61,113 nt of DNA from Deltaproteobacteria bacterium (GTDB taxonomy: Bacteria; Desulfobacterota; Syntrophobacteria; Syntrophobacterales; Syntrophobacteraceae): contig JAKAJS010000197.1 in assembly GCA_021813685.1 (NCBI GenBank), positions 1 to 61,113 of the forward strand, written 5' to 3'. The notes beneath the pieces were generated by a model. That model ran no database searches and was not told the origin of the DNA. It worked only from the letters and a program-made list of their open reading frames with translations. Made by a program: the position numbers and the translations under genes. Below, piece after piece: positions 1-8,277 of this stretch (position 1 is the first letter of the stretch; each line of letters opens with the position of its first letter).

Positions 1-608
1 GTGTGCGAGGAGATGAGAGGCCCCTCGTGGATTCGGACCAGGTCGCGGAAGCCTGGCTCGGCAAGATGAGCCGCATCGAAGGCGAAGCCCTCGCCCCCGA
101 GTTCCTGAACGAGCTTTTTACCCTGTTCGCTCAACCCTTCCGGGAAGGGGACCGCGTTGCCGTCGCCGAGCCGGTTTTTCCCCATATGCGTGAGGCCGGC
201 AACCCTTACGCCTGCCTCGGCGAGTGCCCTACGATCGAACTCGATCAGGCCGTCGGCGTTTTCGACCAGAAAGATCATGCCCGGCCGTTTCAACCGTATG
301 CACTCGTTCAGGTCTTCGGCCGATCTGATGTGAAAAAGCCCCGTGAGGTGTCGTTTTGCGTATGCCAGAAGATAGGAGAGGTACTCTTTGGAGCCGTTTC
401 CGTCATATTCATCCGGACAGTACAGTGCAAATACCGCGGCAATGACGTTTGCGCTCTTCATCTTCTCGGTGGTGACCGCCAGATCGGGCAATTCCTCCAG
501 AGGGACGTCGCGGTGCGATTCCACCATTTCATACAAAACATCGACGTGCCCGTCCATTCGGGCGGCCGTCTCGGGTGGGGCAGCTTCGGTGCGGGGATTC
601 CCGTTCAT
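1..608 (-). CDS. Peptidase family M19 (membrane dipeptidase), truncated by the window edge
   Basis: Reading the minus strand from an ATG at 608 gives an uninterrupted frame of about 202 codons to position 1, where the window ends. Seen in the translation: an early DGHVDVLYEM segment (M19 enzymes start the catalytic barrel with a DGHxD metal motif), then VAGLTHMGKNRLGDG, a GLSEQGKKLV helix, FAFDAAHL (normally DxSH), and the final ISSH. The order and spacing match renal dipeptidase/M19 zinc dipeptidases, which hydrolyse dipeptides and some D-amino-acid-containing peptides. The C-terminal part is missing because of the window edge, not a mutation. It lies on the same strand as, and downstream of, the radical SAM/peptide pair, but a terminator hairpin separates them, so co-transcription is uncertain. 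An AAGAGG lies 13 nt upstream of the chosen ATG, a rather long spacing. Confidence 0.8.
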   Translation of the reverse strand, partial: MNGNPRTEAAPPETAARMDGHVDVLYEMVESHRDVPLEELPDLAVTTEKMKSANVIAAVFALYCPDEYDGNGSKEYLSYLLAYAKRHLTGLFHIRSAEDLNECIRLKRPGMIFLVENADGLIEFDRRALAEAGVRVAGLTHMGKNRLGDGNAVPFPEGLSEQGKKLVQELGGEGFAFDAAHLAEPGFRDLVRIHEGPLISSH

Positions 609-639: not shown

Positions 640-675
640 CAAAAGAACCGGGGAACACATTTCTGTGCTCCCCGG
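640..675 (-). terminator. Rho-independent terminator after the peptide gene
   Basis: The arms CCGGGGAACACA (648-659) and TGTGCTCCCCGG (664-675) pair over 11 of 12 positions with a 4-nt loop. On the minus strand the hairpin is followed by a T-rich stretch (TTCTTTTGTCATTTT). It would end the transcript carrying the radical SAM gene and the small peptide gene, before the dipeptidase. Confidence 0.7.
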
Positions 676-731
676 AATGTGGACAGGTTACTGGTTCCTT
701 ATCTCCGAACCGGAGATTCCGATGGAGCGTG

Positions 732-815
732 TCAGGTAGGCACGACATAAGTCGTCGGCGCCTCATCGACAGCGGTTACGAGTATCTTTTTCTCGATATC
801 CTTCACCTGAAGCAT
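732..815 (-). CDS. 27-residue peptide, candidate RiPP precursor
   Basis: A 27-codon frame begins at ATG 815, 28 bp after the stop of the radical SAM gene. An AGGAGG lies 8 nt before the ATG, inside a purine-rich GGAGAGGAGG run, which is one of the strongest ribosome binding sites in the window; a GTG at 824 is an alternative in-frame start. The peptide starts MLQVKDIEKKILVTA and ends EAPTTYVVPT. It has no cysteine, is charged in its first half and rich in Val, Thr and Pro in its second half, an arrangement that fits a leader followed by a core. Size and position next to an enzyme with a PqqD-like domain recall PqqA. That it is a substrate of the enzyme is inference; no family was recognised from the peptide itself. 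Confidence 0.62.
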   Translation of the reverse strand: MLQVKDIEKKILVTAVDEAPTTYVVPT

Positions 816-843
816 TCTTTTCACCTCCTCTCCTTTCGTGATT

Positions 844-2844
844 TCACTGCGCAAGAAGCTCCATGCCGGCAAGAATCCCGGCGGCCTCCGCGCAGGAGGC
901 GGCGAATTCGCCGCGCTCTTTATCCACACCGTATTTGAGGTACAGTCGGTCTGTAATATCCCCTAAGGTGTTTTTCCCGTCGCACAATTCGAGAAAATCG
1001 ACCCCGAATTCGTTAATCTCCCGCACTTTCGTTCCACCCGGCGCCCGGGTGAAGGTGAGGAATACCGGCCTTTTGGCGCACGTGTCCGGGATTTGTCCGG
1101 ATTTAAAAGGCAAGATAAGACTCGGGATGTCGTATGTGAACCGCTCGAGGGCAACCTTTCGGTTGCGCCGCGGTCGCAGACTGTCTACGCCGGCTGAATC
1201 GATGGCAAACGTTGAATCGGAACCGCTTCCGCCTGACTGGAACAGGCAGGTTTCATACCGAATGAGTTCGGGAAGAAAGTCGGCAGTGATCGTTTCGCGT
1301 CCGGTGAGCCACAGGTGCACAAATTCTTCGAAATGGGTGAGGCAGGCCTTGGCAGAGATCTCTTTTTCCTTTTCTAAAACTCTATTCAGAAAATTGAAAA
1401 AAAGATCGATCACGGGCATGCCCAACTCGCTGCCAAGCAGTAGAAAACTCCTCGGATACAGGGCCGCGATGACGGTAAAGTAGATTGCCGTCTGGTTCAG
1501 TCGTTCGAAGGAGGCGGCCGGGCAGGGCAGGTTGTGGAAACTGCTGAAAATCTCAGGTTCCGAATCGATCAGCAGGTCATCGGAGGCAAGGCGTTTGCCC
1601 GCGTCGAACTCGATTCCCAGCGAGAAATAGGTGTCGACTTGTCGAACCAGCAGTTGCCGATATTTGCTGTATAGCTCGGTTCCCGGCAAAATGGTCGCCA
1701 TCTGCACCAGGATGTTCGTATTTCCCGTGGCCGCAGAGCGCAGCGCAAGCCGGAGCGTTTCCTCCAGATCCTGCCTTTGCTCCTCGGGAAACCCGATCAC
1801 GAAGCTCAAGGTGGGGACGATTCCCGCCTCCGTTGTCTCCCGGACTCTCTCGAAGAGAATTTCGCGGTCGATTTCCTTGCGAATGAAGGCGAGCGTTTTT
1901 TTCGACCCCGAGTCGATCCCGTAGCACATCGTCTCGCATCCGGCCGTGCGCATCAGGGTGAGAAGCTCTTTATCGACGGTATCGAGCCTGGAGATGCAGT
2001 ACCAGGGAAGGTGCGAAAGACCCGCATCCAGCAGCGCCCGGCAGAAGTTTTCCGCAAAGCCCCTCCGTGCTGTAAACTGGTCGAAGGCGAGAAGAAAGCA
2101 CTCGGCGCCGAAATTTCCCGCCAGATTTTTCATCTCTTCGACGATTCTGGGCACCGAAAACGTTCTCGGCCTTCTTCTCCACATGATCGACTGCGAACAG
2201 TAGACGCACCGGTGCGGACACCCCCTTCCCACCTCCAGAATGGCGATCGAGCGCCCGATGCCGCACACATCACGGTACTCACTAAAAGGAGGAACGAACG
2301 AATAATCGCTTACCGGCAGGGAATCGAGATCTTCTATGAGCTCCCGGTCGGGATTTCGCACAATGCTCTCCGATGCGCGAAATGTCACCCCCGGAACCGA
2401 GTTCAACTCTCCCCGCCCTTCGAACGCTTCGATCAATTCCGGAAAAGTGATCTCTCCCTCACCACGAACGATCGCGTCCAGAAACGGGAATCGCGAAAGG
2501 ATACGTTCATCGATCGACGATACGTTGGGGCCCCCAAAGACGATCCTGATCTGCGGGGCGAGCTTCTTTAACTCGCGGGCAATGCCTACGGCCGGAGGCA
2601 GCGTTGTGCACTGCACCGAAAACCCGGCCAGGTCGGGTGCGAAATCAAGGATCTCTTTCGCGCACTGCCTATAGATATTCCTGTCCATCGACAGGGATTT
2701 GCGGCGGATATCGAGCGGAAAATCGAATATTTTGACACTGTTTCCGGTGGGTTTTAGAACCGTGGCAAGATTGATCAGTCCAAGCGGAGGCAAGTTGTAC
2801 ATAGGCTCGAAATAAAACGGGGGAAAGACAAGCGCTATGTTCAT
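844..2844 (-). CDS. B12-binding radical SAM protein with C-terminal PqqD-like (RRE) domain, candidate RiPP maturase
   Basis: About 666 residues. Residues 1-140 form a cobalamin-binding-type Rossmann domain (MNIALVFPP start, VFGGPNVSS, VRGEGEITFPEL). A radical SAM core follows with the cluster motif CPHRCVYC (Cys 209, 213, 216) and later GIDSGS and IGFPEE segments. Residues 592-666 look like PqqD: the INEFGVDFLELCDGKNTLGD segment and the following helices match the fold that binds leader peptides in RiPP pathways. B12-dependent radical SAM enzymes typically methylate unactivated carbons or make related radical changes. Start chosen at 2844 because GGAG lies 5 nt upstream and the domain begins there; an ATG at 2874 is also in frame. 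The small peptide gene follows directly. The domain reading is firm; the substrate is inferred from context. Confidence 0.85.
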   Translation of the reverse strand: MNIALVFPPFYFEPMYNLPPLGLINLATVLKPTGNSVKIFDFPLDIRRKSLSMDRNIYRQCAKEILDFAPDLAGFSVQCTTLPPAVGIARELKKLAPQIRIVFGGPNVSSIDERILSRFPFLDAIVRGEGEITFPELIEAFEGRGELNSVPGVTFRASESIVRNPDRELIEDLDSLPVSDYSFVPPFSEYRDVCGIGRSIAILEVGRGCPHRCVYCSQSIMWRRRPRTFSVPRIVEEMKNLAGNFGAECFLLAFDQFTARRGFAENFCRALLDAGLSHLPWYCISRLDTVDKELLTLMRTAGCETMCYGIDSGSKKTLAFIRKEIDREILFERVRETTEAGIVPTLSFVIGFPEEQRQDLEETLRLALRSAATGNTNILVQMATILPGTELYSKYRQLLVRQVDTYFSLGIEFDAGKRLASDDLLIDSEPEIFSSFHNLPCPAASFERLNQTAIYFTVIAALYPRSFLLLGSELGMPVIDLFFNFLNRVLEKEKEISAKACLTHFEEFVHLWLTGRETITADFLPELIRYETCLFQSGGSGSDSTFAIDSAGVDSLRPRRNRKVALERFTYDIPSLILPFKSGQIPDTCAKRPVFLTFTRAPGGTKVREINEFGVDFLELCDGKNTLGDITDRLYLKYGVDKERGEFAASCAEAAGILAGMELLAQ

Positions 2845-2944: not shown

Positions 2945-3042
2945 GGTGAATCGGTGAATGGAGAAAACGAAGTCTTTTCGATTTACCGATTTATCGTTCC
3001 TAAAAAAGTGAAAGCCAGGAGGAGGGAGGGGGGCCTGGCTTT
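2945..3042. repeat. GGTGAATCGGTGAATGG repeat followed by a long hairpin
   Basis: Positions 2945-2961 carry GGTGAATCGGTGAATGG, identical to 8278-8294. At 3011-3042 AAAGCCAGG and CCTGGCTTT form a 9-bp stem around a G-rich 14-nt loop; on the minus strand it is followed by CACTTTTTTAG. It lies between divergent genes, so it ends no obvious transcript and may be part of a dispersed repeat. Confidence 0.45.
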
Positions 3043-3178
3043 CTGGGGAATTAGGTTTTCAAGAAACCAACTCTATTGGCCCTAAATATCCTGCTTTTGA
3101 GGGCAAAAAACAATCGGGTGAAGACAGTAATAGCGACTACAGCAAAGCAGTATTTCCCTGCGTAATGGATTTTGGGTC

Positions 3179-4003
3179 ATGACACACAACATCTTCGAGG
3201 CCGTGACAAACGGTCGTCTGATAGCCGCACACCGAGGGGCGCGCTCCCTGGCGCCGGAAAACACCCTGGCCGCGGCGCGCGCCGGTCTTGCGGCGGGGGC
3301 GGGAATGTGGGAAATCGACATCCGGTTGAGTAGAGACGGAGAGCCTGTACTGGCCCACGACGAGAGTCTCGAAAAAACCTCCGATGCAAAGGCTGTATTC
3401 CCTGAGCGAAGCCCGTGGCTTGTAGACGAATTTAGTCTGCAGGAACTGAAAACCCTCGACTGCGGCTCCTGGTTCGAAAAAGCAGATCCTTTCGGACTGG
3501 TTGGCGCGGGTCGGGTATCGGTACGCGAACTCCAAAGATATTGCGGCGAAAAGATCGTTACACTGCAAGAAGCGCTCCGGTTTACGGTCGAAAACGACTG
3601 GCTCGTCAATATCGAGATAAAGGACCTGACGGGGCGCCCCGGCCATGAGGCGGTTGTCGGAAAAGTCGTTTCCGCGGTGCACCGGGAGGGCGCGGCCGAA
3701 AGGGTTCTTGTTTCCTCTTTTCATCATCCCTACCTTGCGCAGGTGCGCAGTTTGGACGCAAAAATTCCAACGGGGGTTCTCACAGACAGGTATCATCCCG
3801 ACCCTTCGGCTCTCATGGCCGAACTGGGCTCTTTCACCTTCCATCCTTCGCCGGGCGCTTTTCGTCCGATGCAGGCGCGCAGATTGAAAAAAGAAGGGTT
3901 CGGCGTGCTGGTCTGGGTCTTGAACAACCCGTTCATCGCGCGGGCTCTTTTCGCCATGGGTGTAAATGGAATCTTTACGGATTTTCCCCAGAGATTTTTA
4001 TGA
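3179..4003 (+). CDS. Glycerophosphodiester phosphodiesterase
   Basis: 274 residues of the GDPD family, which hydrolyses glycerophosphodiesters to glycerol 3-phosphate and an alcohol. Seen: the N-terminal IAAHRGARSLAPENT catalytic motif with HR and EN, WEIDIRLSRDGEPVLAHDE with the metal-binding E-x-D and the second catalytic His, NIEIKD in the middle, and a C-terminal GVLVWVLNN...GVNGIFTDFP, all in family order. There is no signal peptide, so it is probably cytoplasmic. Its last codon overlaps the next gene by ATGA, so the two are translationally coupled. No good ribosome binding site precedes the ATG, but the only other nearby ATG runs into a stop. Membrane phospholipid turnover is a plausible role beside hopanoid lipid genes. 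Confidence 0.88.
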   Translation: MTHNIFEAVTNGRLIAAHRGARSLAPENTLAAARAGLAAGAGMWEIDIRLSRDGEPVLAHDESLEKTSDAKAVFPERSPWLVDEFSLQELKTLDCGSWFEKADPFGLVGAGRVSVRELQRYCGEKIVTLQEALRFTVENDWLVNIEIKDLTGRPGHEAVVGKVVSAVHREGAAERVLVSSFHHPYLAQVRSLDAKIPTGVLTDRYHPDPSALMAELGSFTFHPSPGAFRPMQARRLKKEGFGVLVWVLNNPFIARALFAMGVNGIFTDFPQRFL

Positions 4004-4764
4004 GAATAATCATTTTATCGGCTCTCCCGCAGGAATACGCACCTCTTAAAAAACGCTTCCAGGCTTTTCGCGCCGTGTGCAAAAGGCCATACAGAAAATT
4101 TGCGCTGAACCTGGCGGGCAAAGAGATAGGTCTGATCGAAACAGGTATGGGAGACAGGGCGGTACGAGAAGCGCTTCGGAGTGAACCGGCGGCGGATCTT
4201 CTCCTGTTTGCCGGGTTTGCCGGAGCACTTCATCCGGATCTTTGCACCGGATCGGTCTGCTTTGCGGCGAGTGCCCGCCGAATCGAGACCGGCGTCTCCT
4301 ATGCTTTCAGGTTTTCACACGAGTTGAGTGATTTTCTGGCCAAACAAGGGGTACAACCGGTAGTTGCGCTCAGCGCCGATGGGCCGAAAGATAAAAGGGC
4401 GCTCTCGGCCCTTGCCGACGGGGCGCCGGCGGTTTTGGACATGGAAACAGCGACTGTTGCCGAGGAGGCTTTGCTTCGTCATATCCCTTTCCTCTGTTTC
4501 AGGGCGGTAAGCGATGCGATCGACCACGAACTGGGGTTCGACCTGCAAGACATTTGCGACGACCAGTGGAGGGTGAAACCCCTGCGGGTGATTGCGACGA
4601 TACTCAAAAAGCCCTCTACTCTGATGGCCTTCTATCGTTTGTGGCACAACTCGAGCCTTGCGGCAAAAAACCTTTGCGATCCGGTCGCGGCTTTTCTGAA
4701 CCTTCCGGCCGCCCAGCTGGAGAGGATGGCAGCGGGGATCGGGATCGAGATCGAGCGAGACTGA
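4000..4764 (+). CDS. hpnG: Hopanoid-associated phosphorylase/nucleosidase, HpnG-type
   Basis: 254 residues of the purine nucleoside phosphorylase/MTA-SAH nucleosidase superfamily. Seen: MRIIILSALPQEYAPLKKRF start, IETGMGDRAV, LLLFAGFAGAL, and LDMETATVAEEALLRHIP with the catalytic Met-Glu pair, followed by CFRAVSDAIDHEL. The general form is that of HpnG, proposed to act on adenosylhopane to release adenine and give ribosylhopane (known for the family, not shown here). Genes for HpnH, which makes adenosylhopane, and HpnA lie about 2 kb away on the other strand, which supports the assignment. It overlaps the GDPD stop by 4 bp. A generic nucleoside phosphorylase is the alternative. Confidence 0.72.
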   Translation: MRIIILSALPQEYAPLKKRFQAFRAVCKRPYRKFALNLAGKEIGLIETGMGDRAVREALRSEPAADLLLFAGFAGALHPDLCTGSVCFAASARRIETGVSYAFRFSHELSDFLAKQGVQPVVALSADGPKDKRALSALADGAPAVLDMETATVAEEALLRHIPFLCFRAVSDAIDHELGFDLQDICDDQWRVKPLRVIATILKKPSTLMAFYRLWHNSSLAAKNLCDPVAAFLNLPAAQLERMAAGIGIEIERD

Positions 4765-4772
4765 GACCAGAT

Positions 4773-4789
4773 TGACCACCTCATGGTCA
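4773..4789. promoter_or_regulatory. Palindromic operator candidate for the toxin-antitoxin operon
   Basis: TGACCA (4773-4778) and TGGTCA (4784-4789) form a perfect inverted repeat with a 5-nt spacer, ending 32 bp before the antitoxin ATG. RelB-family antitoxins usually repress their own promoter by binding such palindromes. The assignment is from position only; it could also be a small hairpin ending the upstream gene. Confidence 0.45.
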
Positions 4790-4821
4790 TGGGCTACGAT
4801 AGGGCCTGGGAGGTAATTTAA

Positions 4822-5103
4822 ATGGCTGCAAAATATGTTGTGCGTGCGCGAATAGACGGGCAAGTCAAAGCGGAGGCTGAAGCTGTGCTTGCTTCCATAG
4901 GGCTTACGGTTTCAGACGCCTTTCGTTTGATGATGATGCGTATCGCCAAAGAAAAGAAATTGCCTTTTGAGCCACTTACTCCAAATGGGGAAACAATTGA
5001 GGCTATGAGGGCCGCTCGACGCGGTGAGTTCGAATGGGAAGGCTCTTCAGATAAACTCCTTGAGCATCTGAATGCGAATTGTCAGGACAACACATCGATT
5101 TGA
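4822..5103 (+). CDS. RelB/DinJ-family antitoxin
   Basis: 93 residues. The N-terminal half has the ribbon-helix-helix form of DinJ/RelB (VVRARIDGQVKAEAEAVLAS, then GLTVSDAFRLMMMRIA), and the C-terminal half LPFEPLTPNGETIEAM is the toxin-wrapping tail typical of DinJ. GGGAGG lies 8 nt before the ATG. It overlaps the toxin gene by 32 bp, the usual arrangement for this pair. It is expected to neutralise the YafQ-type toxin and autoregulate the operon. The module sits between two groups of hopanoid-related genes transcribed toward each other and shares no strand logic with the minus-strand group, suggesting insertion. Confidence 0.88.
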   Translation: MAAKYVVRARIDGQVKAEAEAVLASIGLTVSDAFRLMMMRIAKEKKLPFEPLTPNGETIEAMRAARRGEFEWEGSSDKLLEHLNANCQDNTSI

Positions 5104-5353
5104 CCGTGACTATAAACGCGAAAAATCAGGGCGACACGGCAAAATGCTTGATACACTCCTTATGGAGGTTGTCGATAGGCTTGTCGCCGACAAGCCTCTG
5201 CCTCCGAACAAATTCGGCCACCCTCTTGTTGGTGACTGGGCCGATCACCCGGACTGCCACATCAAACCAGACCTGGTTCTGATCCATCGGAAACCTGACA
5301 TCGATCACCTGGAACTCGTGCGCCTCGGTTCTCATAGCGAACTCAATCTTTAG
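5072..5353 (+). CDS. YafQ-family mRNA interferase toxin
   Basis: 93 residues, the normal YafQ length. YafQ toxins are ribosome-dependent endoribonucleases. Residues corresponding to the catalytic set of E. coli YafQ are visible: His50 (KFGHPL), His63 and Asp67 (CHIKPD), and His88 in the C-terminal LGSHSEL segment. The start ATG at 5072 lies inside the antitoxin gene, giving coupled translation. No frameshift or loss of key residues is seen, so the toxin is probably functional. The product is preceded and followed by genes of unrelated function. Confidence 0.87.
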   Translation: MRIVRTTHRFDRDYKREKSGRHGKMLDTLLMEVVDRLVADKPLPPNKFGHPLVGDWADHPDCHIKPDLVLIHRKPDIDHLELVRLGSHSELNL

Positions 5354-5387
5354 TCTCCGCAATGCTTGCCATCCCCTCAGGGCGCAC

Positions 5388-6227
5388 TCAAATCCCCGGT
5401 TGCGCAAAAGCCTCCTTCGCCTCCGCGCCGGTGTGGCCGAGCTTGTAGAGCGTGAAGAAGACCATCGGTACGGTGAGGGTTGCCAGGAGCAGAAGGTCCA
5501 CCAGGCCCAGGAGCATTTCCCGGATGTAGAAGGTGATCGAAATATTGAACACCAGGACCGAGAAGTAGAGAATGGGGCCAAGAAGCCTCAGCCACGACGC
5601 ACGGCCCCCCGGGGAATGCGGTGTTGCCCCTTCGGGGTCGAACCGTTCGAGAGCCTGCAGGGCAGCCGTCAAAACCAGGCCTACCACCAGCCAGCCTCCG
5701 AAATTACTCATCGGAATCCCGAAGTAGAACCCCTCGTGGCGGTAGCCGTAAATGAGGCCCAGAAACCATTTGCTGCCCTGAAGAGCGACCGGGTCGATCA
5801 CAATGTCGAGCAGCACGAAAAGAAAGGCCCCCAGAAAGAGCGTGGACCACGAACGCCGTATCCGGCGGGTTTCATAGGTGACAAGATTTCCCGATCGGAG
5901 CGCAAGCGGGCTCATCAGCAAAACTGCCAGCGAGTAGCTGCAATAGGAGAGGAAAACGTAGGAAAGGGAGTCCATGAAGGGGACCCCCCAAACCCACAGT
6001 TCTTTGTTTGCGGTGGTGTGAATGTAGAAATAGTCGCCGTAGGGAAATCCCCAGTGGATCGAGCAAAACTCGGAGAGCCACGCCAGCCCGTAGCCCAGGG
6101 GGATGTAGGCAAGCGTCTTTTTCCACCCGAAATGGGAGATGCCTGCGACAACATAGACGGCCAGGAAGGCGAACACATAGGGGCGTAAAACCAGGGTCCC
6201 CCAGAAAAGCCTCAGAAACTCATGCAT
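5388..6227 (-). CDS. Carotenoid biosynthesis membrane protein, CruF/DUF422 family
   Basis: 279 residues with about seven hydrophobic segments (for example VLRPYVFAFLAVYVVAG, LFLGAFLFVLLDIVIDPVAL, WLVVGLVLTAAL, ILYFSVLVFNISITFY). The segment around SIHWGFPYGDYFY, the IDPVALQ motif and the PMSNFGGW motif are characteristic of the CruF family, bacterial gamma-carotene 1',2'-hydratase-like proteins of isoprenoid metabolism. It starts inside the last codons of hpnH (8-bp overlap), so it is translated with it. The partnership with hopanoid genes suggests action on a C30 isoprenoid or squalene-derived lipid rather than a classical carotenoid, but the substrate cannot be read from the sequence. Confidence 0.75.
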   Translation of the reverse strand: MHEFLRLFWGTLVLRPYVFAFLAVYVVAGISHFGWKKTLAYIPLGYGLAWLSEFCSIHWGFPYGDYFYIHTTANKELWVWGVPFMDSLSYVFLSYCSYSLAVLLMSPLALRSGNLVTYETRRIRRSWSTLFLGAFLFVLLDIVIDPVALQGSKWFLGLIYGYRHEGFYFGIPMSNFGGWLVVGLVLTAALQALERFDPEGATPHSPGGRASWLRLLGPILYFSVLVFNISITFYIREMLLGLVDLLLLATLTVPMVFFTLYKLGHTGAEAKEAFAQPGI

Positions 6228-7218
6228 CGATGTTCCACTTAACCATTCGCCAAAGATCTTTTATCCCCATCTGGCGCACGATGGTCGGCTCGAAGCCGCA
6301 GTGCACCATGCACTGGGCGCACCTGGGGTCGGCCCCCGAAGCGTAGTGCTCCCAATCGGTACGTTCCATGAGTTCGGCGAACGTGGGGTAATGCGTATCC
6401 GTAATGAGGTAGCAGGGCGATTTCCACCCTCGCGGGTTGCGTGTCGGGTTTCCCCAGGGCGTGCACTTGAGCGAGCGTTTCCCGGCGACGAATTCCAGGT
6501 AAAGCGGATTGCTGATGATCGGGTACTTGCGGCCCCAGGTGCTGATTTCGCGAAATTTTTCCACGATCTCGTTTTTGTCGGTCAAAAAGACATCCCGAAC
6601 GACTTCTTCGTAGCTAAACCCCGGGGCCACGAGGATGCCGTCCACCCCGGCGCGGGTAAGCTGGGCAAAAAGGCTCGCGAGGTCTTCCACCGAGCTTTCC
6701 TTAAAGACGGTGGTGTTGGTGCTTACGCGAAAGCCGCGTTCTTTGGCGGCGCGAACGGCGGCAAGAGCTTTTTTAAACCCTCCCGGCCTTCCGATTATGG
6801 CGTCGTGAACCGGCTCTGTCCCATCGAAATGGACGTTCCAGGTAAAATGCGGGCTGGGCTTGAAAAGATGCAAAGACTCTTCGAGCAGAAGGCCGTTTGT
6901 GCAAAAGTAGATGTGTTTTCCGCGGGCGAGGGTTTCTTCGACCAGTTCCGAGATTTTGGAGTAGAGCAGGGGTTCTCCGCCCGTAATCGTCACCACCGGG
7001 GTTTTCGCCTCCTCGATGGCTGTGAGACACTCCTGGAGAGTCATTTCCTGTGAGAGCGTGTCGTGATATTCCCGAATTCTTCCACAGCCGGAACAGGTCA
7101 GATTGCACCTGTGAGTTGGCTCGAGCATCAATACGAGTGGAAATCGCTCGACTCCGCGAAATTTATTCCCGGCGAGCCAGCCGACCATCGAAACATAAAG
7201 ACTGATTGGAAAACGCAT
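6220..7218 (-). CDS. hpnH: Adenosyl-hopene transferase HpnH (radical SAM)
   Basis: 332 residues. The N-terminus MRFPISLYVSMVGWLAGNK and the PTHRCNLTCSGCGRI cluster motif (Cys 38, 42, 45) are diagnostic of HpnH, which adds a 5'-deoxyadenosyl radical to diploptene to form adenosylhopane. Other visible family features are VVTITGGEPLLY, FTWNVHFDGTEPVHD, and a cysteine-rich C-terminus (CTPWGNPTRNP, then CAQCMVHCGFEP). The start at 7218 is chosen because it matches the family N-terminus; the frame runs further upstream without a recognisable sequence. It is 44 bp downstream of hpnA and overlaps the CruF-like gene by 8 bp, so the three form an operon. Confidence 0.93.
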   Translation of the reverse strand: MRFPISLYVSMVGWLAGNKFRGVERFPLVLMLEPTHRCNLTCSGCGRIREYHDTLSQEMTLQECLTAIEEAKTPVVTITGGEPLLYSKISELVEETLARGKHIYFCTNGLLLEESLHLFKPSPHFTWNVHFDGTEPVHDAIIGRPGGFKKALAAVRAAKERGFRVSTNTTVFKESSVEDLASLFAQLTRAGVDGILVAPGFSYEEVVRDVFLTDKNEIVEKFREISTWGRKYPIISNPLYLEFVAGKRSLKCTPWGNPTRNPRGWKSPCYLITDTHYPTFAELMERTDWEHYASGADPRCAQCMVHCGFEPTIVRQMGIKDLWRMVKWNIDA

Positions 7219-7262
7219 CCGAACCTCGATTCTCCCGGGTAGAGTGCAACGCGCTGCCGCTT

Positions 7263-8255
7263 CTACCCCTTTTTGACATATCCGTTTTGTGTGAACCAGT
7301 CGACCGCATCCGAAAGAGCGGTCTCCACCGGGGTCTGCGGCAGCCCCAGTTCCCGTACCGCCCTGGAACTGTCGAAAAACATTCGTTTTGCCGCCATCCT
7401 TACCCCCTCGTAGGGAATCATGGGCTCGCGGCGGGTAATGAAGGAGGCAAGCTGAAAAAATCGGGCGAGCCATAAAATGGGGGTATAGGGCAGCTTTACC
7501 GTCGGTGCCTTCACCCCGGAAATCTTTTCCAGCATGGAAAAGATTTGGGCAAGCGTCAGGTTGCGGTTGCCCAGGATGTATTTTTCCCCAACTTTCCCTT
7601 TTTCCAAGGCGAGCCGGTGCCCTTCGGCAACGTCTCGTACATCCACGATATTGAGACCGGTCTCCAGATAGGCGGGCATCTTCCTGTTCAGAAAATCGAC
7701 GATGATCTTCCCGGTCGGCGTCGGTTTGTGGTCTCCCGGACCCACCGGGGTGCTCGGGTGGACAAACACCACCGGGAGCCCCTCCTGCAGGAATTTTTCC
7801 GCCTCGCGCTCGGCGAGAAATTTCGATCTTTTGTAATGTCCCACCATGTCTTCCAGGCAGACGGGTGTATGTTCATCGGCCGGCGTCCCGTCATGGTGCA
7901 ACCCGAGAGCCCCCACACTGCTCGTGTAAACGACCCTCTCGACTCCTGCGGTCAAAGCCGCCTGCATGACGTTGATCGTCCCGGTGACGTTGCTTTCGTA
8001 AATCTCCCGCGGGTCTTTTGCCCATAACCGGTAATCGGCCGCGACATGGAAGACCGCCTGCGCCCCGCTCATCGCCTCGACTACCCTGCCAGGATTGCGG
8101 ATGTCGCCGGTAAACCATTCCAGGCCGGGCGCCTCCAAGCACCGAGGCGAACGCGTGCGGCAAAGAGCCCGCACCTCCCAGCCATTTTGAAGCAGAACGG
8201 TTGCGACATGACGTCCGACAAATCCTGTTGCTCCCGTAAGAAAGGCTACGGGCAT
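7263..8255 (-). CDS. hpnA: Hopanoid-associated sugar epimerase HpnA
   Basis: 330 residues of the extended SDR/NAD-dependent epimerase family. Seen: the nucleotide-binding FLTGATGFVGRHVA at the start, YTSSVGALGL, the catalytic Y-x3-K in VGHYKRSKFLAE, and HPSTPVGPGDHKPTPTGKII, which is typical of HpnA proteins in hopanoid clusters. Its position directly before hpnH supports the name. The exact reaction of HpnA is not firmly known; a role in side-chain sugar processing is assumed. GGAGG lies 5 nt before the ATG at 8255; an ATG one codon earlier is also possible. Confidence 0.88.
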   Translation of the reverse strand: MPVAFLTGATGFVGRHVATVLLQNGWEVRALCRTRSPRCLEAPGLEWFTGDIRNPGRVVEAMSGAQAVFHVAADYRLWAKDPREIYESNVTGTINVMQAALTAGVERVVYTSSVGALGLHHDGTPADEHTPVCLEDMVGHYKRSKFLAEREAEKFLQEGLPVVFVHPSTPVGPGDHKPTPTGKIIVDFLNRKMPAYLETGLNIVDVRDVAEGHRLALEKGKVGEKYILGNRNLTLAQIFSMLEKISGVKAPTVKLPYTPILWLARFFQLASFITRREPMIPYEGVRMAAKRMFFDSSRAVRELGLPQTPVETALSDAVDWFTQNGYVKKG

Positions 8256-8277
8256 CATTTCCTCCGCAAGTAGAAAC

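What the first reader, a model, noticed from the sequence alone, without database searches (positions are those of the whole stretch)
732..2844. Candidate new RiPP system: B12 radical SAM enzyme with built-in PqqD-like domain and a 27-residue cysteine-free peptide
The enzyme combines a cobalamin-binding domain, a CPHRCVYC radical SAM core and a C-terminal PqqD-like leader-binding domain in one chain. A 27-codon gene with one of the strongest ribosome binding sites in the window follows 28 bp later, before a terminator. The peptide splits into a charged half and a Val/Thr/Pro-rich half ending PTTYVVPT. RRE domains fused to radical SAM enzymes are known in RiPP pathways; a B12 enzyme with a minimal single peptide of this kind is not one I can name. 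C-methylation of Val, Thr or Pro carbons is a plausible but unproven outcome.
Basis: partly seen in the sequence, partly recalled or inferred. Interest (0 to 1): 0.85.

Follow-up and report, generated by a model that had tools for sequence, protein, structure and literature searches.

The report
Selenocysteine peptide with B12 radical enzyme
A bacterial peptide that looked like an ordinary 27-residue peptide carries on through its apparent stop codon, which very probably encodes selenocysteine; with the vitamin-B12 radical enzyme encoded beside it, it belongs to a family of modified peptides that I found nowhere described and that may be a ribosomal, oxygen-free route to sulfur- or selenium-containing histidine.

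Summary
The enzyme (844-2844, minus) is a cobalamin radical-SAM protein ending in a genuine RRE (PqqD-like) domain. That architecture is known from ApyD. The peptide is real but was read too short. Its "stop" TGA (732-734) sits where a Cys codon lies in a CHAP repeat. The frame continues UHAPSESPVRR to TAA (699-701), and a SECIS-like hairpin (701-717) follows. Over 14 genomes the post-TGA codons show pN/pS 0.09, other frames 2.6 and 39, and conservation ends at the second stop. The genome carries tRNA-Sec, SelA and SelB. So the precursor is very probably a 38-residue selenopeptide.

Of 46 related loci, 43 carry such a precursor behind the enzyme. Elsewhere in the Desulfobacterota it is (xCHAP)n with several Cys. 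The Sec form arose once, in the window's clade. Twenty loci, all Cys-type, also carry a methyltransferase whose closest families are 5-thio-/5-selenohistidine N-methyltransferases; 26 loci, the window included, have an M19 dipeptidase. My favoured but unproven reading is conversion of Cys/Sec-His to thio-/selenohistidine; C-methylation, as by ApyD, is the main rival. No description of this family turned up. Sec-containing RiPPs themselves are known (selenobacteriocins, SbtM).

The parts
844..2844 (-). B12-binding radical SAM enzyme with C-terminal RRE, 666 aa
   Evidence: Pfam and NCBIfam; 45 further loci at 43-76% identity in named contigs; AlphaFold2 pLDDT 85; fold matches CysS Z 29.6, AprD4 29.4, OxsB, MgmA, TsrM, TokK
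2434..2799 (-). cobalamin-binding domain, residues 16-137
   Evidence: PF02310 1.7e-14
1744..2235 (-). radical SAM core, residues 204-367; CxxxCxxC at residues 209-216
   Evidence: PF04055 2.3e-21; the three Cys nearly invariant in 17 orthologues
847..1188 (-). RRE (PqqD-like) domain
   Evidence: PF05402 in 22 of 39 orthologues; model pLDDT 91; best structural matches are RRE-leader complexes TbiB1 Z 9.3 and lasso B1 Z 9.1, also MibB, PqqD, NisB, PbtF
699..815 (-). selenopeptide precursor, 38 aa: MLQVKDIEKKILVTAVDEAPTTYVVPT-U-HAPSESPVRR, stop TAA 699-701
783..815 (-). leader MLQVKDIEKKI (family motif roughly M-L-x-[VIL]-K-x-[VI]-E-[KR]-[KR])
   Evidence: shared by Sec and Cys precursors; pN/pS 0.14
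732..734 (-). TGA, selenocysteine codon (U28)
   Evidence: TGA in 14 of 14 family genomes that carry the motif although the pattern allowed TGN; aligns with Cys of CHAP repeats
701..717 (-). SECIS-like hairpin AUCUCC-GGUUC-GGAGAU, apical loop from 20 nt after UGA
   Evidence: nearly invariant stem in 14 genomes, -7.6 to -9.1 kcal/mol; satisfies the bSECIS model in PMC13188914
822..829 (-). ribosome binding site AGGAGGTG of the precursor gene
   Evidence: sequence; the motif (A)GGAGGTG recurs before nearly all relatives' precursors
648..675 (-). intrinsic terminator or attenuator between precursor and dipeptidase
3..608 (-). M19 dipeptidase, truncated by the contig end
   Evidence: PF01244 2.9e-20; full-length relative 1.6e-55; M19 lies downstream in 26 of 46 loci

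Best explanation
The locus encodes a RiPP-type pathway whose precursor is a 38-residue selenopeptide. Its leader MLQVKDIEKK is bound by the C-terminal RRE of the B12 radical-SAM enzyme (inferred from fold and conservation). SelB and tRNA-Sec decode UGA 732-734 as selenocysteine through the hairpin just downstream (strong comparative evidence, not shown biochemically). The enzyme then acts on the U-H-A-P unit, the Sec counterpart of the C-H-A-P units that recur up to 13 times in precursors of relatives. The favoured outcome is transfer of S or Se from Cys/Sec to the neighbouring His to give peptidyl 5-thio-/5-selenohistidine, which peptidases including the M19 enzyme would release (inferred from the OvoA/OvsM-like methyltransferase in Cys-type operons). 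The stated confidence is for a selenopeptide precursor modified at its [C/U]HAP unit; for the thio-/selenohistidine outcome I give about 0.33.
For: Coding after TGA: pN/pS 0.09 over 10 codons and 0.09 over the five codons before the hairpin, other frames 2.64 and 39, sequence after the second stop 0.91. TGA is fixed in 14 of 14 motif-bearing genomes. Cys homologues: CHAP repeats behind the orthologous enzyme. One Cys-to-Sec change on the enzyme tree. SECIS-like hairpin in all 14. In the window's genome: tRNA-Sec 74 bits, SelB 366 bits, SelA 622 bits; SelD of three relatives itself has an in-frame TGA. RRE fold. Co-occurrence: 43 of 46 loci, and 13 of 13 genomes found by the RRE domain. The Cys-type operon methyltransferase matches TIGR04345 ovoA_Cterm in 18 of 18 and solved OvsM 1.8e-32, OvoA 3.3e-32, OvoM 8.4e-32.
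Against: No expression, mass or selenium data. SelD is not found above cut-off in this fragmented MAG; SelB is missing from G001's assembly and a full tRNA-Sec from G021's. The stem has no compensatory changes, and 2.6% of all TGA triplets in the window have a hairpin that passes similar rules, so the hairpin alone is weak. No Sec locus has the methyltransferase nearby, and the known thiohistidine methyltransferases act on free amino acids (my knowledge). The best-matching characterised enzyme, ApyD, is a C-methylase.
Confidence: 0.7

Rival explanations
1. The precursor is a selenopeptide, but the enzyme C-methylates a residue of the core (for example Cbeta of His, or of the Tyr/Phe in TYVVP), as ApyD methylates Cbeta of Tyr. 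No selenohistidine is formed.
For: ApyD is the best NCBIfam hit (260 bits, next 163) and makes beta-methyltyrosine (PMC10635010); fold matches are largely methylases; an aromatic or His residue is kept near the eroded second repeat (HVP, HVVP, YVVP).
Against: 260 bits is far below ApyD's 750-bit cut-off; B12-rSAM enzymes also do other chemistry; it does not explain the OvoA/OvsM-type methyltransferase beside CHAP precursors.
Confidence: 0.35
2. The mature peptide stays whole and works as a metal-binding or redox peptide: the [C/U]-H-A-P units ligate a metal or reduce oxidants, and the enzyme only tunes them.
For: Regular Cys/His spacing and variable repeat number; UHxP is also the Sec motif of formate dehydrogenase (PMC13188914).
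Against: One Sec unit replaces up to 13 Cys units, odd for a metal-storage peptide; an operon dipeptidase suggests breakdown to small products; no transporter or metal gene stood out among recurrent neighbours.
Confidence: 0.2
3. TGA 732-734 is a real stop: the precursor is 27 residues and the downstream hairpin is only a 3' RNA structure.
For: This is the default reading; the hairpin stem is conserved as DNA.
Against: Third-position-only variation in H, A and P outside the hairpin, loss of conservation exactly at the second stop, and Cys homologues with the same HAP.
Confidence: 0.06
4. The short frame is a regulatory or chance ORF and the enzyme acts on something else.
For: The product has not been seen; L055 and L058 keep the enzyme without a recognisable precursor.
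Against: Conserved leader and ribosome binding site, selection on the frame, RRE in the enzyme, 43 of 46 co-occurrence.
Confidence: 0.03

Closest known systems
ApyD, aminopyruvatide pathway (B12-rSAM with RRE; PMC10635010)
   Same: B12-binding, radical SAM and RRE in one chain, acting on a short precursor; best NCBIfam match
   Different: Sequence far below the ApyD cut-off; no P450 or MNIO seen among recurrent neighbours; precursor unrelated (modified motif GYLYD in ApyA, no CHAP units, no Sec)
Selenobacteriocin / SbtM system (TIGR04081; thio(seleno)oxazole RiPPs, Lewis et al. 2021, as reviewed in PMC11002830 and PMC13188914)
   Same: Sec-containing RiPP precursor with a SECIS element after TGA, modified by a radical SAM enzyme; assayed with Cys and Sec substrates
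   Different: SbtM is an rSAM-SPASM enzyme, not a B12 enzyme; the precursor motif is SGUG, not UHAP; no NCBIfam hit for this precursor
Ovothiol and ovoselenol methyltransferases (OvoA C-terminal domain, OvoM, OvsM)
   Same: The methyltransferase of Cys-type operons belongs to this superfamily
   Different: Here fused to a Trm112-like domain and next to a radical SAM enzyme; absent from the window's clade
CefA, Cys-every-fifth RiPP peptide (NF038108)
   Same: Cys every fifth residue, as in (xCHAP)n
   Different: At most 21 bits against a cut-off of 30; none of 148 phylum genomes over cut-off; the match is to the repeat spacing

Membership tests
RiPP pathway | Ribosomal precursor with conserved leader and variable core beside a modifying enzyme | tested here: met
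   Leader M-L-x-[VIL]-K-x-[VI]-E shared by Cys and Sec precursors; cores vary; 43 of 46 loci
RiPP pathway | RRE domain with RRE fold | tested here: met
   PqqD Pfam; top structural matches RRE-leader complexes
RiPP pathway | Post-translational modification of the precursor | not testable with these tools
   Needs co-expression and MS
Selenoprotein | In-frame UGA with conserved coding sequence on both sides | tested here: met
   pN/pS 0.28 before, 0.09 after
Selenoprotein | Cys-containing homologues at the UGA position | tested here: met
   CHAP precursors of orthologous loci
[quoted passage not shown]
   14 of 14
Selenoprotein | Sec machinery in the genome | tested here: met
   tRNA-Sec, SelB and SelA in G000; SelD not found in this MAG but present in relatives
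Selenoprotein | Selenium in the product | not testable with these tools
   Needs 75Se label or MS
ApyD equivalog | Score above NF050148 cut-off (750 bits) | tested here: not met
   260 bits
ApyD-type B12-rSAM architecture | B12-binding, radical SAM and RRE in one chain | tested here: met
Selenobacteriocin TIGR04081 | Precursor matches the NCBIfam model | tested here: not met
   No NCBIfam match for the extended precursors up to E 10
CefA NF038108 | Score above cut-off | tested here: not met
   At most 21.2 of 30 bits for CHAP peptides; none for the window's peptide
Ovothiol-type pathway | Thio-/selenohistidine N-methyltransferase in the operon | tested here: inconclusive
   Superfamily member present in 20 Cys-type loci (18 ORFs scored; 87 and 102 bits for the two shown in full, cut-off 170); absent beside every Sec precursor

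The most novel reading that the evidence does not exclude
A ribosomal, oxygen-independent route to ovothiol-family amino acids: the B12 radical-SAM enzyme joins S (CHAP) or Se (UHAP) to the neighbouring His on a repeat peptide, a methyltransferase of the OvoM/OvsM type N-methylates it in Cys lineages, and M19 releases it. The window's clade would make 5-selenohistidine from a genetically encoded Sec-His pair.
Probability: 0.33. Interest if true: 0.95.

Novelty: new variant of a known kind. Interest (0 to 1): 0.86.

Why it matters
If right, this is a second kind of natural Sec-containing RiPP, with a different enzyme class from SbtM. It belongs to a Desulfobacterota-wide peptide family that I found in neither the libraries nor the papers searched. 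It gives a clean natural experiment, one Sec replacing many Cys in the same pathway, and a testable candidate for how strict anaerobes could make thiohistidines without O2. It also shows how Sec precursors hide from annotation: the gene is too short to call and is cut at TGA.

Tried and rejected
The 27-residue, Cys-free reading: rejected by the conserved post-TGA frame. Filing as ApyD, CefA or selenobacteriocin: below cut-off or no match. NF038108 in phylum genomes: L095 looks like a pentapeptide-repeat false match and L096 is a CHAP system of this family. Rfam for a known RNA at the post-TGA hairpin: nothing. Covariation in the hairpin: uninformative, the stem hardly varies. PADLOC: only a weak general radical SAM hit. 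Literature: no hit for CHAP-repeat RiPPs or for Sec RiPPs other than SbtM/selenobacteriocin; one review passage mentions an Entotheonella RiPP operon with SelA and SelB homologues. Subscription papers are mostly not held, and the SbtM and ovoselenol papers could not be read. The UHAP-hairpin pattern over 395 phylum genomes found only this clade plus chance-like matches.

Full report
OBSERVATION. The enzyme described is present: 844-2844 (minus), 666 residues, with B12-binding, radical SAM (CPHRCVYC, residues 209-216) and a C-terminal PqqD match. The short gene starts 28 bp further on behind AGGAGGTG. A terminator-like hairpin lies at 648-675, and behind it an M19 dipeptidase is cut by the contig end at 3-608. 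The window is G000:C221 of a 5.06 Mb MAG. Named relatives are Syntrophobacteraceae and other Desulfobacterota.

THE ENZYME. The best NCBIfam match is ApyD (260 bits, cut-off 750), and the C-terminal part matches the RRE protein ApyI. ApyD is described as an RRE-containing B12-rSAM enzyme that makes beta-methyltyrosine (PMC10635010), so the fused architecture is not new. An AlphaFold2 model (pLDDT 85) matches CysS (Z 29.6), AprD4, OxsB, MgmA, TsrM and TokK. The last 114 residues modelled alone (pLDDT 91) match RRE-leader complexes best (TbiB1 Z 9.3, lasso B1 Z 9.1), then MibB, PqqD, NisB and PbtF among others; Foldseek by itself gave only weak E-values. I take the domain as a true RRE.

THE PEPTIDE FAMILY. 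Orthologues were taken from whole genomes and from named contigs (45 loci at 43-76% identity). Of these 45 plus the window, 43 have a short gene directly behind the enzyme with a strong ribosome binding site and a leader like MLKIKKVEKK. L073 ends 90 bp after the enzyme; L055 and L058 lack it. An independent search of 395 phylum genomes with the RRE domain alone found 13, and all 13 have the peptide. Outside the window's clade the core is a repeat, for example SYAASCHAPSCHAPSCHAPACHAPA, with Cys every fifth residue and up to 13 units.

THE STOP CODON IS NOT THE END. In the window and 13 relatives the codons after TGA read CAY GCN CCN [AT]CN [GC]AR TCT CCN GTN CGG AGA and then a stop: H-A-P-[ST]-[EQ]-S-P-V-R-R. 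The TGA takes the place of Cys in a CHAP unit. Over these 14 sequences pN/pS is 0.09. It is also 0.09 in the five codons that precede the hairpin, where pS is 0.74, so RNA structure does not explain the pattern. The other two frames give 2.64 and 39, and sequence after the second stop gives 0.91. The second stop varies (TAA, TAG, TGA) at a fixed place. A pattern that allowed TGN found TGA in 14 of 14 motif-bearing family genomes, one copy each.

SECIS AND MACHINERY. AUCUCC-GGUNC-GGAGAU has its apical loop 20 nt after UGA, a 6-7 bp stem, G in the loop's first two positions and -7.6 to -9.1 kcal/mol in all 14. This meets the bSECIS rules quoted in PMC13188914. Hairpins of this sort follow 2.6% of all TGA triplets in the window, so it supports the case but would not make it alone; the stem shows no covariation. 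G000 has tRNA-Sec (95 nt, 74 bits), SelB (366 bits) and SelA (622 bits). SelD is above cut-off in G001, G015 and G021, each with an in-frame TGA, but not in G000. Full-length tRNA-Sec is present in all UHAP genomes but G021, and SelB in all but G001, which I put down to fragmented MAGs.

EVOLUTION. On the enzyme tree the Cys-repeat precursors are spread over the deep branches, and the Sec precursors form one nested group (supports 99/98, 96/80 and 100/100 on the path), needing a single change. Within it the remaining Cys erode stepwise: CHAP or CHES to HEAP to DEAP, and CHVP to SHVP, HVVP and YVVP. So 'cysteine-free' is a derived state that goes with one Sec.

THE OPERON. Within 2 kb downstream, 26 of the loci examined have an M19 dipeptidase and 20 a methyltransferase; seven have both. 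Every Sec locus with enough sequence has M19, and none has the methyltransferase. The methyltransferase has a Trm112-like N-terminus. All 18 ORFs tested match TIGR04345 ovoA_Cterm, and the profile's best solved relatives are OvsM (5-selenohistidine N-methyltransferase, 1.8e-32), OvoA (3.3e-32) and OvoM (5-thiohistidine, 8.4e-32), the next at 1.2e-13. The full-length M19 of L050 keeps the expected HxD, Glu and two His motifs (sequence; my knowledge of the family).

MECHANISM. Shown comparatively: an enzyme-precursor pair with an RRE, a Sec codon, and [C/U]HAP as the conserved unit. Inferred: the RRE binds the leader and the enzyme acts on [C/U]HAP. Two outcomes are close. C-methylation follows the nearest characterised enzyme and fold. 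Sulfur or selenium transfer to the neighbouring His follows the operon: Cys-His or Sec-His pairs in the units, a methyltransferase of the thio-/selenohistidine kind, and a dipeptidase that could free the amino acid. B12 radical-SAM enzymes are also stated to form thioethers (abstract of PMC13331322). I give the histidine route about 0.33. It must be kept in mind that the Sec clade lacks the methyltransferase nearby.

NOVELTY. Sec RiPPs are known: SbtM acts on a precursor with a SECIS element after TGA (PMC11002830), and 'selenobacteriocin TIGR04081, SGUG' is listed in PMC13188914, whose table gives UHxP for formate and formylmethanofuran dehydrogenases. No NCBIfam model matches this precursor, and no paper found in the held library described CHAP/UHAP precursors, though the library lacks most subscription journals. 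I therefore call it a new variant of a known kind, with a chance of a new pathway type if the histidine chemistry holds.

Noticed in passing
L055 (G002), 4470-4532: The enzyme's C-terminus runs directly into ...PPESPVRR-stop: a deletion seems to have removed leader and Sec codon and fused the enzyme to the precursor's tail.
   Followed up: partly
L056 (G005), 10109 and 10579: Two candidate precursors in tandem: one with CHAPGMT/CHAPGS units, one Sec form (VHEAPTIHVVPQ-U-HAPTESPVRR). The first may be a DNA repeat.
   Followed up: partly
window 4000-8258: Hopanoid genes lie upstream: HpnH 6220-7473 minus (424 bits), likely HpnG 4000-4764 plus and HpnA-like 7263-8258 minus (by eye); similar neighbours in close relatives only.
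   Followed up: no
window 3008-3045: Inverted repeat GAAAGCCAGG...CCTGGCTTTC in the divergent intergenic region between the enzyme and a GDPD gene; function unknown.
   Followed up: no
G001, G015, G021: SelD in these relatives has one in-frame TGA, so it is itself a likely selenoprotein; useful as an internal control for Sec decoding.
   Followed up: partly
UHAP unit (window 723-734): UHxP is also the Sec motif of formate dehydrogenase and formylmethanofuran dehydrogenase; convergence or shared metal ligation is untested.
   Followed up: no
L058 2215-4236: Sister of the Sec group on the enzyme tree, but no CHAP or UHAP precursor, methyltransferase or M19 within 1.7 kb downstream.
   Followed up: partly
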